Below are positions 1,139 to 7,212 of a stretch of DNA of 7,838 bases, one piece after another. A program made the position numbers and the translations under genes. How positions within the stretch are numbered: the stretch's first letter is position 1; every line of letters starts with the position of its first letter. Origin of the DNA: Candidatus Bathyarchaeota archaeon (lineage in GTDB: Archaea > Thermoproteota > Bathyarchaeia > RBG-16-48-13 > GCA-020355125); assembly GCA_030617005.1 (NCBI GenBank), contig JAUWWH010000031.1, positions 1 through 7,838 on the forward strand, given 5' to 3'. The notes under the pieces are model-generated. The model ran no database searches. It worked only from the letters and a program-made list of their open reading frames with translations, and was not told where the DNA came from.

Positions 1139-2092
1139 TTACACTACTTCCTTAGTAACTCTGATTATATCCTCCACAGAAGGTATCACAGCCTGTTCTA
1201 ATAAGACCGTACAGGGTATAGGCGTTCCTGGATTTGCCACCCGCATCACAGGAGCATCTAAATATCCAAGTGCTTTTTCGGCTACAATAGCAGCAATTTC
1301 AGCTCCAAATCCATAAGCTTTTGGAGATTCCTGAACAGTAATTAGCCTACTCGTCTTTTTTACAGATTCGATTATAGTATTTTCATCTAAAGGAAGCAAC
1401 GTCCTCAGATCAATAACCTCACAACTTATGCCCTCCTTATGAAGTTTATTTGCAGCTTCAAGAGATTTATGGAGCATTTGAGCCATAGCGACTATTGTAA
1501 CATCTTCTCCCACGCGCTTTACATCAGCTTTTCCCAATGGAATAATAAATTCTTCCTCCGGGATTGAACTCTCTTTCTCCCGTAGAAGCTTATGTTCTAA
1601 AAAGACAACAGGATTATTATCTCTAATAGCGGATTTTAAGAGACCTTTAGCATCATATGGAGTCGAAGGCATTACGATTTTAAGACCTGGAGCGTTTAAT
1701 ATAAAGGATTCAGGACTTTGAGAATGATGTAAACCGAGGCCTCTACCAGTGGCGCCTATTGAAGCTCTTACTACCATTGGACAGGTGACCTCTCCCCCAT
1801 ATTGGTAACATATCATTCGCGCACTGTTAACTAGGTGATCCATACACAAAGGAAGAAGGCTACTAAACATGATCTCCACTATTGGTCGCATCCCATTTAA
1901 CGTAGCTCCGACTCCGACACCAACCATCGCTGATTCGGAGATCGGTGTGTTTAAAATTCTTTCACTAAAGTCTTCCTTCAACGCGGGGTAGAAGTACTCA
2001 ATATCTTCCCCGATCATAAACACCCGAGTGTCCCGCAACATTTCCTCCCTAATAGCTTCAATTATAGCGCTTCTAAAACCAATCTTTCTCAC
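1139..2092 (-). CDS. 2-oxoacid dehydrogenase E1 component, beta subunit
   Basis: Beta subunit of the thiamine-diphosphate-dependent E1, which decarboxylates a 2-oxoacid and reductively acylates the lipoyl group of E2; it works as an alpha2beta2 tetramer. The protein has the transketolase-type pyrimidine domain followed by the C-terminal domain. Visible landmarks are GED near the N-terminus, PISE (E53, the conserved Glu that activates the ThDP pyrimidine), HHSQSPES (H123, active-site His), EHKLL, and a C-terminal domain with DLRTLLPLD and QESPKAYGFGAEI. I prefer GTG at 2092, giving MRKIGFRSAI like other family N-termini, over TTG at 2095; a GGAGG motif precedes both. The segment after GED is shorter than usual and lacks the familiar GGxF loop. 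It lies 18 bp after E1alpha in the same operon. Whether it is pyruvate, branched-chain or acetoin type is not resolved. Confidence 0.95.
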   Translation of the reverse strand: MRKIGFRSAIIEAIREEMLRDTRVFMIGEDIEYFYPALKEDFSERILNTPISESAMVGVGVGATLNGMRPIVEIMFSSLLPLCMDHLVNSARMICYQYGGEVTCPMVVRASIGATGRGLGLHHSQSPESFILNAPGLKIVMPSTPYDAKGLLKSAIRDNNPVVFLEHKLLREKESSIPEEEFIIPLGKADVKRVGEDVTIVAMAQMLHKSLEAANKLHKEGISCEVIDLRTLLPLDENTIIESVKKTSRLITVQESPKAYGFGAEIAAIVAEKALGYLDAPVMRVANPGTPIPCTVLLEQAVIPSVEDIIRVTKEVV

Positions 2093-3924: not shown

Positions 3925-4631
3925 TTATAAAAGGCGAGTTTTTTGAATATCCTCTCTAATCCGTTTAACTGTTTTCCAAGACTTTCTAACAAAATCAGGC
4001 AGACTATTCTTCTCTGTGATCCAATTTGTTAAAAACCGCCGCGTCTTAGGATCACTACTATACCCACTTCCTAAGTCTCCATATCTCTCCCTTAGATCGT
4101 TAATAACTTCGTCTCTATGGACTTTAGCTATTATTGACGCAGCACCAACGACAACATATTTAACATCTGCATGGTGTTCCGAAATAATTTTAACCTCGAA
4201 AGAAAGCATTTCTCTTATCTGCTTACCAAAGCGTATTTCATTTACATCAGAAGCGTCAATGTATGCAATTTCTGGTTTGAGTTTCATTACGATCTGTGCC
4301 ATAGCCTTTGCTTCAAACCAATTCAATTTGTGTAATCGCTTCCCTTTTAAGACAACTCTGTCAATCTCTGAGGGTTGAAAATCCAGAATAATATGTTTTA
4401 GCGCCAACCTCTTTATTGCATACGAAAGGCGTTGCCTTTTATTAGGAGTTAATAATTTTGAGTCCCTAATACCCAAAGCATACAGTTTAGGAATATGATA
4501 ATCATAAAATAGAACACCTGCGACTACTAGGGGGCCTATGACGGGTCCTATAGGGAAGAGGAGAAATCCCTTCTCTTTCTCCCTGCCTCATCGACCCCGC
4601 AGATTAATTTACTAATCTTCGTCCCACCCAT
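3925..4631 (-). CDS. rnhB: ribonuclease HII, interrupted by a 29-nt candidate BHB intron (exons 4631-4579 and 4549-3925)
   Basis: RNase HII cleaves the RNA strand of RNA-DNA hybrids and starts removal of single ribonucleotides from DNA. The uninterrupted frame begins only near LGIRDSKLLT (codon 43) and would lack half the active site. Upstream, an ATG at 4631 opens a frame reading M-G-G-T-K-I-S-K-L-I-C-GVDEAGR; 29 nt later, in another frame, comes GPVIGPLVVAGVLFYDY, leading into LGIRDSK. Excising 4550-4578 gives GVDEAGRGPVIGP, the family signature, and exactly 226 codons (225 residues plus stop), a normal archaeal RNase HII length. Catalytic residues in the spliced protein are D14, E15, D116 (IDAS) and D146 (HHADVKY). 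ASIIAKVHRD and the SGYSSDPKTRRFL block are also present. Unspliced translation stops after 27 residues. Alternatives are a pseudogene or an assembly error, but all 183 downstream codons look intact. No Shine-Dalgarno is needed, as the predicted leader is about 6 nt. Confidence 0.9.
4550..4578 (-). other. candidate 29-nt archaeal mRNA intron with bulge-helix-bulge fold in rnhB
   Basis: On the minus-strand RNA, AGGG (4584-4581) pairs with CCCU (4555-4552) as a 4-bp central helix. Bulge 1 is AGA (4580-4578) and bulge 2 is AUA (4551-4549). The inner stem pairs 4577-4573 with 4556-4560 (AAGAG:CUCUU), then an A.C mismatch, then AG:CU, closing a 6-nt loop at 4569-4564. Cutting after the second nucleotide of each bulge (AG|A and AU|A) releases 29 nt and joins AG to AGGACCC, restoring Arg18-Gly19-Pro20. 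The outer helix is weak: C4585-G4548, then an internal loop, then GAUGAG with CCCGUC containing one mismatch and one wobble. This is the relaxed HBh' type that some archaeal endonucleases accept. The exact cut is ambiguous by 1 nt, with the same product. The fold is read by eye, with no energy calculation. Confidence 0.82.
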
Positions 4632-6109: not shown

Positions 6110-6346
6110 ATGAAGGCATGTATTTTAATAAAAACCGATCCAAGTAAAATTAAGACCATAGCAAAAATTGTAGAAAAAATTGAAGGGGTAAAAATTGCCT
6201 TTCCCGTCTTAGGAAGGACAGATGTAGTAGCGAGCGTAGAAGCATCTACTCTAGAGCAGTTAAGTATTCTCGCTTTTAAGATAGGCGGAACTCCTGGTGT
6301 GATAGCTACAGAGACCCTTGTTGGATTAGCGGGGGTAATAGAATGA
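6110..6346 (+). CDS. stand-alone Lrp/AsnC ligand-binding (RAM) domain protein 1
   Basis: A 78-residue protein consisting only of the RAM (AsnC_trans_reg) beta-alpha-beta fold; the DNA-binding HTH half of Lrp/AsnC regulators is absent. It starts directly with strand 1 (MKACILIKTD), followed by a helix with IVEKIEGV, then the conserved hairpin PVLGRTDVVASVEA containing the G-x-x-D signature of effector-binding Lrp proteins, a second helix, and the final strand GVIATETLV. Such stand-alone RAM proteins are common in archaea and form oligomeric rings that bind amino acids; some may pair with HTH-bearing partners. Its stop overlaps the next start by ATGA, so the two are almost certainly co-transcribed and translationally coupled. 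The ligand and target are unknown. Confidence 0.9.
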   Translation: MKACILIKTDPSKIKTIAKIVEKIEGVKIAFPVLGRTDVVASVEASTLEQLSILAFKIGGTPGVIATETLVGLAGVIE

Positions 6347-6570
6347 CACGGGGTATTATGTTGGTGAAGGTTAGCTCAAAATTAACGGCAAATTTCATCA
6401 AAGAAGTAAAGAATAAAGAGGGGGTAATTGATGTTTATCCTGTCTTCGGACGTTTCGATGCTGTTGTCTTTATAGAAGGGAAAAATTTTTCAGAGATGAA
6501 GAATGTAGTATTAAATATAATCCAAACAAAGGGAATTAGGAGCACAGAAACGTTTACAGAAGCAATTTAA
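6343..6570 (+). CDS. stand-alone Lrp/AsnC ligand-binding (RAM) domain protein 2
   Basis: A 75-residue paralogue-like neighbour of the preceding gene, again a RAM domain with no HTH. The same order is seen: strand MLVKVSS, helix FIKEVKNKEGV, hairpin PVFGRFDAVVFIEG with the G-x-x-D signature, helix, and final strand GIRSTETFTE. Identity with protein 1 is low apart from the core pattern (V-PV-GR-D-V and TET), so this is an old duplication or a recruited partner rather than a recent copy. The ATG at 6343 forms an ATGA overlap; an internal ATG at 6358 (MLVKV) would also give a typical RAM start. A hetero-oligomer with protein 1 is a reasonable inference. Confidence 0.88.
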   Translation: MTRGIMLVKVSSKLTANFIKEVKNKEGVIDVYPVFGRFDAVVFIEGKNFSEMKNVVLNIIQTKGIRSTETFTEAI

Positions 6571-6604: not shown

Positions 6605-7212
6605 TCAGTTTCCCTTAAACCCTAACGCTAAGAAATATATCTCTGAACTCTTCTTCCTACTAGCCTTGGGTTTTACAATCCTCACAAACTTAAAGTAGTT
6701 CTCAACTTTTTTCATAAAATCCTTCAAAAGATCTCCATGAAAGACCTTTATAAAAAAAGATCCGTCACGACGCAGAACGGTAATAGCAATCTTTAAGGCA
6801 CCTTCAGCTAAACCAATCTGCCTAGCATGGTCCAAGTCCCAAATTCCAGATATGTTTGGAGAGATGTCAGATAAAACTACATCCGCTTTTTTGGGTAACT
6901 CTTGAAGAAGATCAAAACCCTCCAGAAAAGTTATATCACCAATAAATGAAGCCACATTATCCCACTCGAACCTTCAATCGTCTCTAGATCCACACCTAAC
7001 ACATACCCATCCTTACCAACCAATTCCCTAGCTATTTGCATCCACCCTCCTGGTGCTGCACCTAAATCGAGAACAACATATCCTCGCTTAATAAAGCGGT
7101 ACTTCTCTGAAGTTTGAAGAAGTTTATAGGCTGCACGACTCCTATAACCCTCGCTCTTTGCAAGCCTATAGTAGTAATCTTTTGCCCTTTCCCTAAGCCA
7201 CTTCTTAGTCAT
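6605..7212 (-). pseudogene. rlmE: 23S rRNA (uridine-2'-O-)methyltransferase RlmE/FtsJ, split by a single-base frameshift
   Basis: RlmE methylates the ribose of a uridine in the 23S rRNA A-loop using SAM. The N-terminal part is read in one frame from ATG 7212 (KDYYYRLAKSEGYRSRAAYKLL, then LDLGAAPGGW) to a stop at 6931. The rest lies in the neighbouring frame (SDISPNISG, IKVFHGD, KASRKKSSEIY) down to 6605. They join at about 6969-6971: one extra T in GGTTCG would give ETIEGFEWDNVASFIGDI, a smooth RlmE sequence of 202 residues. The K-D-K-E tetrad is then complete: K30, D116, K156 and E191, with the SAM-site D49. There is no slippery heptamer or other recoding signal, so the likeliest explanations are a sequencing or assembly error in a TTT run, or a recent inactivating deletion. 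A second start (GTG, 6955) exists but would lack the SAM site. Confidence 0.9.

What the first reader, a model, noticed from the sequence alone, without database searches (positions are those of the whole stretch)
4550..4578. 29-nt BHB intron in the RNase HII mRNA
Two independent lines converge on the same nucleotides. First, protein conservation demands that GVDEAGR be followed directly by GPxxGP, which requires removing exactly 29 nt at this place and restores a 226-codon frame. Second, the RNA around it forms the archaeal splicing-endonuclease substrate: central helix AGGG:CCCU of exactly 4 bp, 3-nt bulges AGA and AUA, and a contiguous inner stem. The predicted cuts fall within both bulges. 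Introns in archaeal protein genes are rare (the known example I can name is cbf5 in Thermoproteota); I know of none in rnhB, and 29 nt would be very short for an mRNA intron.
Basis: partly seen in the sequence, partly recalled or inferred. Interest (0 to 1): 0.95.

Follow-up and report, generated by a model that had tools for sequence, protein, structure and literature searches.

The report
Tiny conserved intron in archaeal rnhB
In this archaeal genome the gene for the DNA-repair enzyme RNase HII is interrupted by 29 bases, and 16 other archaeal genomes carry a 19- to 31-base insert at exactly the same spot; it is likely a tiny intron that the cell's tRNA-splicing enzyme would cut out of the messenger RNA, which matters because in the papers found only one other archaeal protein gene (cbf5) had a demonstrated intron of this kind.

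Summary
Removing 4550-4578 (minus strand) restores a 226-codon RNase HII frame. Inserts of 19-31 nt sit at the identical place, inside the Arg codon of DEAGRG, in at least 15 of 224 Bathyarchaeia genomes with an rnhB match and in 2 genomes of another class. In 17 of 17 the protein-defined cuts fall at 2|3 of two 3-nt bulges; the 4-bp central helix is complete in 16 of 17. The helices covary, and RNAalifold finds them unaided. Exons are under purifying selection. The genome encodes two splicing-endonuclease subunits and RtcB. An insert at the site of the known cbf5 intron is present in 14 of 14 of these genomes with a clear cbf5. Corrections: 29 nt is normal (cbf5: 16-44), the outer helix is missing, and the window's own minimum-energy fold is not the BHB. 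No RNA data were available; splicing is inferred. New member of a known kind.

The parts
4579..4631 (-). rnhB exon 1 (53 nt): ATG start to the first two letters of the Arg codon of DEAGRG
   Evidence: translation and spliced frame; Pfam RNase_HII from position 1 only when spliced
4550..4578 (-). predicted 29-nt BHB (HBh'-type) intron
   Evidence: coordinates; same-site inserts in 16 other genomes; covariation
3925..4549 (-). rnhB exon 2 (625 nt with stop): last letter of the Arg codon to the stop
   Evidence: NCBIfam TIGR00729 ribonuclease HII 213 bits when spliced
4581..4584 (-). central helix, 5' strand AGGG (exonic: last base of the Ala codon plus the Gly codon GGG)
   Evidence: this helix paired in 98.1% of cells in A3
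4578..4580 (-). 5' bulge AGA; predicted cut between 4579 and 4578 (2|3)
   Evidence: bulge AGA in 17 of 17
4573..4577 (-). inner helix, 5' strand AAGAG
4556..4560 (-). inner helix, 3' strand CUCUU
4552..4555 (-). central helix, 3' strand CCCU (intronic)
4549..4551 (-). 3' bulge AUA; predicted cut between 4550 and 4549 (2|3)

Best explanation
[quoted passage not shown] Shown by sequence: the insert, the frame it breaks, the same-site inserts in 16 other genomes, the covarying helices, exons under purifying selection, and genes for two endonuclease subunits and for RtcB. Inferred: cutting, ligation, the heterotetramer, and the need for splicing. Unspliced mRNA would give only a short peptide that ends at a TAG straddling the 3' splice site, and the downstream ORF lacks the DEAGR motif, whose Asp and Glu are catalytic in RNase HII (recalled).
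For: Frame restoration to full-length RNase HII. 17 genomes with 19-31 nt inserts at one site and phase; in 17 of 17 the cuts set by protein conservation fall at 2|3 of both 3-nt bulges, the 5' bulge is always AGA, the central 4 bp are complete in 16 of 17, a contiguous inner helix of 3-10 bp is there in 17 of 17. A3, 15 sequences, 13 distinct: 98.1% of cells paired against 81.2% shuffled, covariation 0.577 against 0.225, 19 cells changed on both sides against 5.6, 0/500 each; slid versions at most 65.7%. The first central pair links an exon wobble base to an intron base and appears as UA, AU, CG, GC and GU. RNAalifold finds the 8 pairs without being told. The Gly codon is GGG in 14 of 17 intron genes against 6 of 103 intronless rows on hand, p=3e-11. 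G034 against G035: dS 0.65, intron 0 of 20 changed; G329 against G420: 3 of 30 changed, all in the loop. Two EndA genes (C97, with a KPK stretch aligned to 2cv8; C251); RtcB in 13 of 17 genomes, the own included. Inserts at the known cbf5 intron site in the same genomes.
Against: No RNA reads. The window's BHB is not its minimum-energy fold: -7.5 against -11.8 kcal/mol locally, inner-stem probability 0.08, and the central helix falls to 0.04 with 20-nt flanks; the drawn BHB is the local MFE in only 4 of 17, and G044 and G046 fit poorly. The 81-nt region folds no better than shuffles (z -0.60). No conserved outer helix. Two of the five measures (pairs with double changes, further pair types) do not exceed the shuffles. 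G046 has AWR for AGR and one broken central pair. RtcB was not detected in 4 of 17 genomes, 2 of them 97% complete. A3 was fitted to the structure by model R1, though 12 of its 15 rows were not used to build R1.
Confidence: 0.93

Rival explanations
1. Translational bypassing: the ribosome would hop over the 29 nt, as in T4 gene 60 (recalled), and the insert is never removed from the RNA.
For: The insert is short and hairpin-forming, and a frame-restoring hop would give the same protein.
Against: A hop needs a landing triplet that matches the take-off codon. Take-off would be AGA in 17 of 17, but the triplet before GGN is AUA, ACA, AUG, AAA, ACG, UGA or AAG; AGA in 0 of 17 (bulge columns). It does not explain why exon bases covary with intron bases, nor the two bulges.
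Confidence: 0.03
2. The insert has made rnhB a pseudogene, or it is an unspliced micro-insertion.
For: The MAG is fragmentary and 65% complete, and the neighbouring rlmE gene has a frame break. G046 has a Trp in the motif.
Against: Spliced exons give an open RNase HII frame in 17 of 17 (two cut by contig ends); dN is below dS in all six close pairs with a finite dS (0.011/0.121, 0.015/0.063, 0.034/0.088, 0.084/0.648, 0.107/0.8, 0.062/0.208; three distant pairs are saturated); no second rnhB in the 65%-complete assembly.
Confidence: 0.02
3. Assembly or sequencing artefact.
For: Unnamed MAG contig.
Against: Same-site inserts, mostly of different sequence and length, in 16 other assemblies.
Confidence: 0.005

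Closest known systems
cbf5 pre-mRNA intron of Desulfurococcales and Sulfolobales (PMC2738675; first report Watanabe 2002, not read)
   Same: Very short (16-44 bp there, 19-31 here), relaxed BHB-like motif, cuts between residues 2 and 3 of the bulges, breaks an active-site motif codon, host with a heteromeric EndA
   Different: Another gene (rnhB), another lineage (Bathyarchaeia and one further class); cbf5 splicing is shown by cDNA, rnhB splicing is not
Archaeal tRNA introns with relaxed HBh' motifs (PMC6379350, passages)
   Same: 4-bp central helix, 3-nt bulges, inner helix within the intron
   Different: In a messenger RNA; no tRNA in the window
BHB processing of Haloferax HVO_1309 mRNA (PMC7714728, passages)
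   Same: EndA acts on an mRNA
   Different: There it is in the 5' UTR, not inside a reading frame

Membership tests
EndA-spliced BHB intron in an archaeal protein-coding gene (cbf5 type) | Insert breaks a conserved protein frame that removal restores | tested here: met
   17 of 17
EndA-spliced BHB intron in an archaeal protein-coding gene (cbf5 type) | 4-bp central helix between two 3-nt bulges, cuts at 2|3 | tested here: met
   register 17 of 17, all four pairs 16 of 17. Not the minimum-energy fold of the window RNA
EndA-spliced BHB intron in an archaeal protein-coding gene (cbf5 type) | Outer helix (only for the canonical hBHBh' form) | tested here: inconclusive
   77.4% of cells paired and set off by unpaired bases; relaxed forms are described in PMC6379350, and unconventional BHB is usual in cbf5 (PMC2738675)
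EndA-spliced BHB intron in an archaeal protein-coding gene (cbf5 type) | Host has a broad-specificity EndA | tested here: inconclusive
   two EndA genes in G000; one matches 2cv8/3p1z/3ajv/2zyz with the KPK of the Crenarchaea-specific loop aligned, the other is a second subunit; specificity itself is inferred
EndA-spliced BHB intron in an archaeal protein-coding gene (cbf5 type) | RtcB ligase present | tested here: met
   own genome yes (cut by contig end), 13 of 17 overall
EndA-spliced BHB intron in an archaeal protein-coding gene (cbf5 type) | Spliced mRNA observed | not testable with these tools
   no RNA data
Translational bypass element | Matching take-off and landing codons | tested here: not met
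   0 of 17
Group I or II intron | Catalytic RNA core | tested here: not met
   29 nt long; no Rfam match in the window at gathering scores
Intein | In-frame protein insert | tested here: not met
   29 nt, out of frame

The most novel reading that the evidence does not exclude
Messenger-RNA splicing by the tRNA-splicing machinery is an old, standing trait of this archaeal phylum: introns of 13-31 nt in rnhB and cbf5, each breaking an active-site motif, date back to before Bathyarchaeia split from related classes, have been kept or passed on as intron-bearing alleles, and make a genome-maintenance enzyme and an RNA-modification enzyme depend on splicing-endonuclease activity.
Probability: 0.35. 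Interest if true: 0.88.

Novelty: new member of a known kind. Interest (0 to 1): 0.8.

Why it matters
As of 2020 cbf5 was described as the one archaeal mRNA with a reported BHB intron (PMC7714728, passage; likewise PMC2738675 for 2009). A second gene, with the insert at the identical codon in 17 genomes of two classes, would turn a curiosity into a class, would make automatic annotation truncate rnhB in these archaea, and makes the origin of archaeal mRNA introns testable by comparison. Both introns break an active-site motif, so function would depend on splicing. Inserts at the cbf5 intron site outside Desulfurococcales and Sulfolobales also bear on the published single-gain scenario.

Tried and rejected
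Search for further introns in the own genome: on 100 of 261 contigs plus the window (524 kb), a loose BHB and frame scan gave 157 candidates at the true register; the slid-register lists were also long and the output was cut, so it is useless as a detector. A strict version gave 2 (rnhB, and one on C20 that I did not test further) against 10, 2, 3 and 9 at four slid registers: no sign of more introns, low power. Canonical outer helix: rejected as a conserved feature. One origin against many: the RNase HII tree needs at least 8 changes of the label, 16 when shuffled (104 of 120 rows; 16 rows of f15 and outgroup dropped), yet one clade of all intron bearers is not rejected (p-AU 0.464, 62 of 120 rows); undecided. 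rnhB in genus mates G001 and G002: no match in these incomplete MAGs, so presence within the genus could not be checked. Rfam: nothing in the window at gathering scores. Papers: searches listed no article on an archaeal rnhB intron, and none on Bathyarchaeia introns in protein genes (judged from titles and abstracts, and from passages for PMC7714728); the library lacks most subscription journals and preprints.

Full report
Observation. On the minus strand the RNase HII gene runs from ATG 4631 to a stop ending at 3925. GVDEAGR (frame) and GPVIGP (frame) are separated by 29 nt, 4550-4578. Read without them the gene has 226 codons including the stop and hits RNase_HII from the first to the last profile position (151.8 bits; the downstream ORF alone covers 12-199 with 122.4 bits), ribonuclease HII TIGR00729 (213 bits) and solved RNase HII chains such as 2dfh and 1io2 (1e-55). 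One rnhB was found in the assembly (65% complete).

The insert is shared. The window's genome is placed in the Bathyarchaeia by inference: the nearest named records are Bathyarchaeota MAGs, and the contig of one of them has the length of the G004 contig of the same family. In the same order, two genomes of another family (G008, G009) carry a 30-nt insert at the same codon, with an in-frame TAA, while G004-G007, G010 and G011 have none. A covariance model from three of these and a second from fifteen, run over 256 class genomes, gave 15 insert-bearing rnhB: G000, G008, G009, G033, G034, G035, G040, G042, G043, G044, G046, G047, G048, G049, G222; they score 70-92 bits with 81-93 nt spans, the next best 49.7 bits with the 62-nt intronless span. 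31 genomes with weak, odd or missing matches were searched again, and 13 of those loci were read. In that class 23 of 44 genomes had a match and no third insert was seen.

Anatomy. With borders set by protein conservation, every one of 17 inserts splits the Arg codon of DEAGRG after its second letter, is 19-31 nt long, and is flanked by 3-nt bulges whose 2|3 positions are the borders; the 5' bulge is AGA in 17 of 17; the four central pairs form in 16 of 17 (G046: three); a contiguous inner helix of 3-10 bp follows in 17 of 17. On alignment A3 (15 rows, 13 distinct; G329 and G420 not in it) the eight pairs are formed in 98.1% of cells, with covariation 0.577 against 0.225 shuffled and 19 against 5.6 cells changed on both sides, none of 500 shuffles as high; sliding the partner drops pairing to 65.7% or less. 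The number of pairs with double changes (4 against 3.2) and of further pair types (10 against 9.0) do not exceed the shuffles. A3 was made with a model of that structure, which leans the counts towards it, but RNAalifold applied to A3 predicts the same eight pairs itself, plus four in exon 2. A candidate outer helix is weaker, 77.4%, so I assign the motif to the relaxed HBh' type (type names from PMC6379350, passages).

Results against. The window RNA alone does not favour the BHB: local MFE -11.8 against -7.5 kcal/mol, inner-stem probability 0.08; with 20-nt flanks its central-helix probability is 0.04, and it is 0.31 or less there for G040, G042, G046, G329 and G420 as well; with 6-nt flanks it is 0.74-0.98 in 16 of 17 and 0 in G046, and the drawn BHB is the local MFE in 4 of 17. 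The 81-nt region is no more stable than shuffles (z -0.60). G046 reads AWR where others read AGR, which also breaks a central pair. RtcB was not found in G008, G034, G044 and G420.

Selection. The Gly codon that pairs with the intron's 3' part is GGG in 14 of 17 intron genes against 6 of 103 intronless rows for which I held DNA (5 of 72 in the class); Arg is AGR in 17 of 17 against 59 of 103. dN/dS on the exons is about 0.09-0.39 over the six close pairs with a finite dS. In the five of these with inserts of equal length (G008-G009, G047-G049, G047-G048, G034-G035, G329-G420) the insert is unchanged in four, once at dS 0.65, and changed at 3 of 30 loop positions in the fifth. A dead gene or a free insertion would not look like this.

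Machinery. The genome has two PF01974 genes. The 195-aa one matches 2cv8, 3p1z, 3ajv and 2zyz and keeps KPK where 2cv8 (Sulfolobus tokodaii, recalled) has it; PMC12397907 (passages) describes the lysine of the Crenarchaea-specific loop as followed by Pro or Val and then Lys or Arg. The 177-aa one is a second subunit; its best solved matches are 5x89 and 1a79. That the two form an (alpha-beta)2 enzyme, the kind reported to cut relaxed motifs (PMC6379350), is inferred. RtcB is encoded.

A second gene in the same genomes. As a control I looked for cbf5. 14 of the 17 genomes have a match over the family's cut-off, and in 14 of 14 a 13-21 nt insert sits between letters 1 and 2 of the Asp codon of GGTLDP (13 by script; G044 by eye; loci), the site given for the crenarchaeal cbf5 intron (PMC2738675 section 7 passage); the central helix is complete in 13 of 14. 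In G000, G046 and G048 only weak matches were found. PMC2738675 (conclusion) puts the gain in the ancestor of Desulfurococcales and Sulfolobales and lists Korarchaeum, Cenarchaeum and Nitrosopumilus without it; no Bathyarchaeia are in that table.

Mechanism. Most likely the hairpin AGGG-AGA-AAGAG...CUCUU-CCCU-AUA forms in the nascent mRNA, EndA cuts AG^A and AU^A, RtcB joins AG to A, and translation reads GVDEAGRGPVIGP. Cutting, joining and any regulation are inferred. Translational bypass is disfavoured, because take-off (AGA) and landing triplets match in 0 of 17.

Origin. The label needs at least eight changes on the RNase HII tree, but the data do not reject one clade of all intron bearers (p-AU 0.464): one old intron with losses, transfer of intron-bearing alleles and repeated gain all remain open.

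Literature. PMC2738675 (sections 5 and 9, section 8 part 1 of 2, and passages): no confirmed archaeal pre-mRNA splicing beyond cbf5 in 2009, with other putative introns predicted. PMC7714728 (passages): in 2020 cbf5 was the only reported BHB intron in mRNA, besides its own 5' UTR substrate. Searches listed nothing on rnhB or Bathyarchaeia mRNA introns; preprints and most subscription papers are not in that library.

Noticed in passing
L262-L269 and L270-L275 (cbf5 loci of G040, G042, G035, G034, G033, G420, G222, G047, G008, G009, G043, G044, G049, G329): cbf5 in 14 of 14 inspected rnhB-insert genomes has a 13-21 nt insert inside the catalytic Asp codon, the site of the known crenarchaeal cbf5 intron; this extends that insert to Bathyarchaeia and another class.
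   Followed up: partly
window 6605-7212, minus strand, near 6931-6965: rlmE/FtsJ (TIGR00438) is split into two frames, profile 1-75 and 79-187, apparently by one base; an assembly error or a frameshift rather than an intron.
   Followed up: partly
G043:C118:5610-8417: RtcB matches in two pieces (1-50 and 46-426) about 1.47 kb apart within one 996-aa open frame: likely an intein in the ligase gene.
   Followed up: no
L076 (G046), match 1501-1588, minus strand: rnhB of G046 reads DEAWRGP, a Gly-to-Trp change that also breaks a central-helix pair; sequencing error or beginning decay.
   Followed up: no
L088 (G133), rnhB: An otherwise full-length, intronless rnhB has an in-frame TGA (GP*VIAG), where the relatives read here have Leu or a similar residue.
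   Followed up: no
window 6110-6570, plus strand: Two adjacent small proteins of 78 and 75 aa, overlapping by 4 nt, each resembling the ligand-binding part of AsnC/LysM-type regulators.
   Followed up: no
RNase HII of G329 and G420 (L115, L116): These genomes of another class fall among Bathyarchaeia rows in the RNase HII tree, on a long branch: transfer of an intron-bearing rnhB or long-branch placement.
   Followed up: partly
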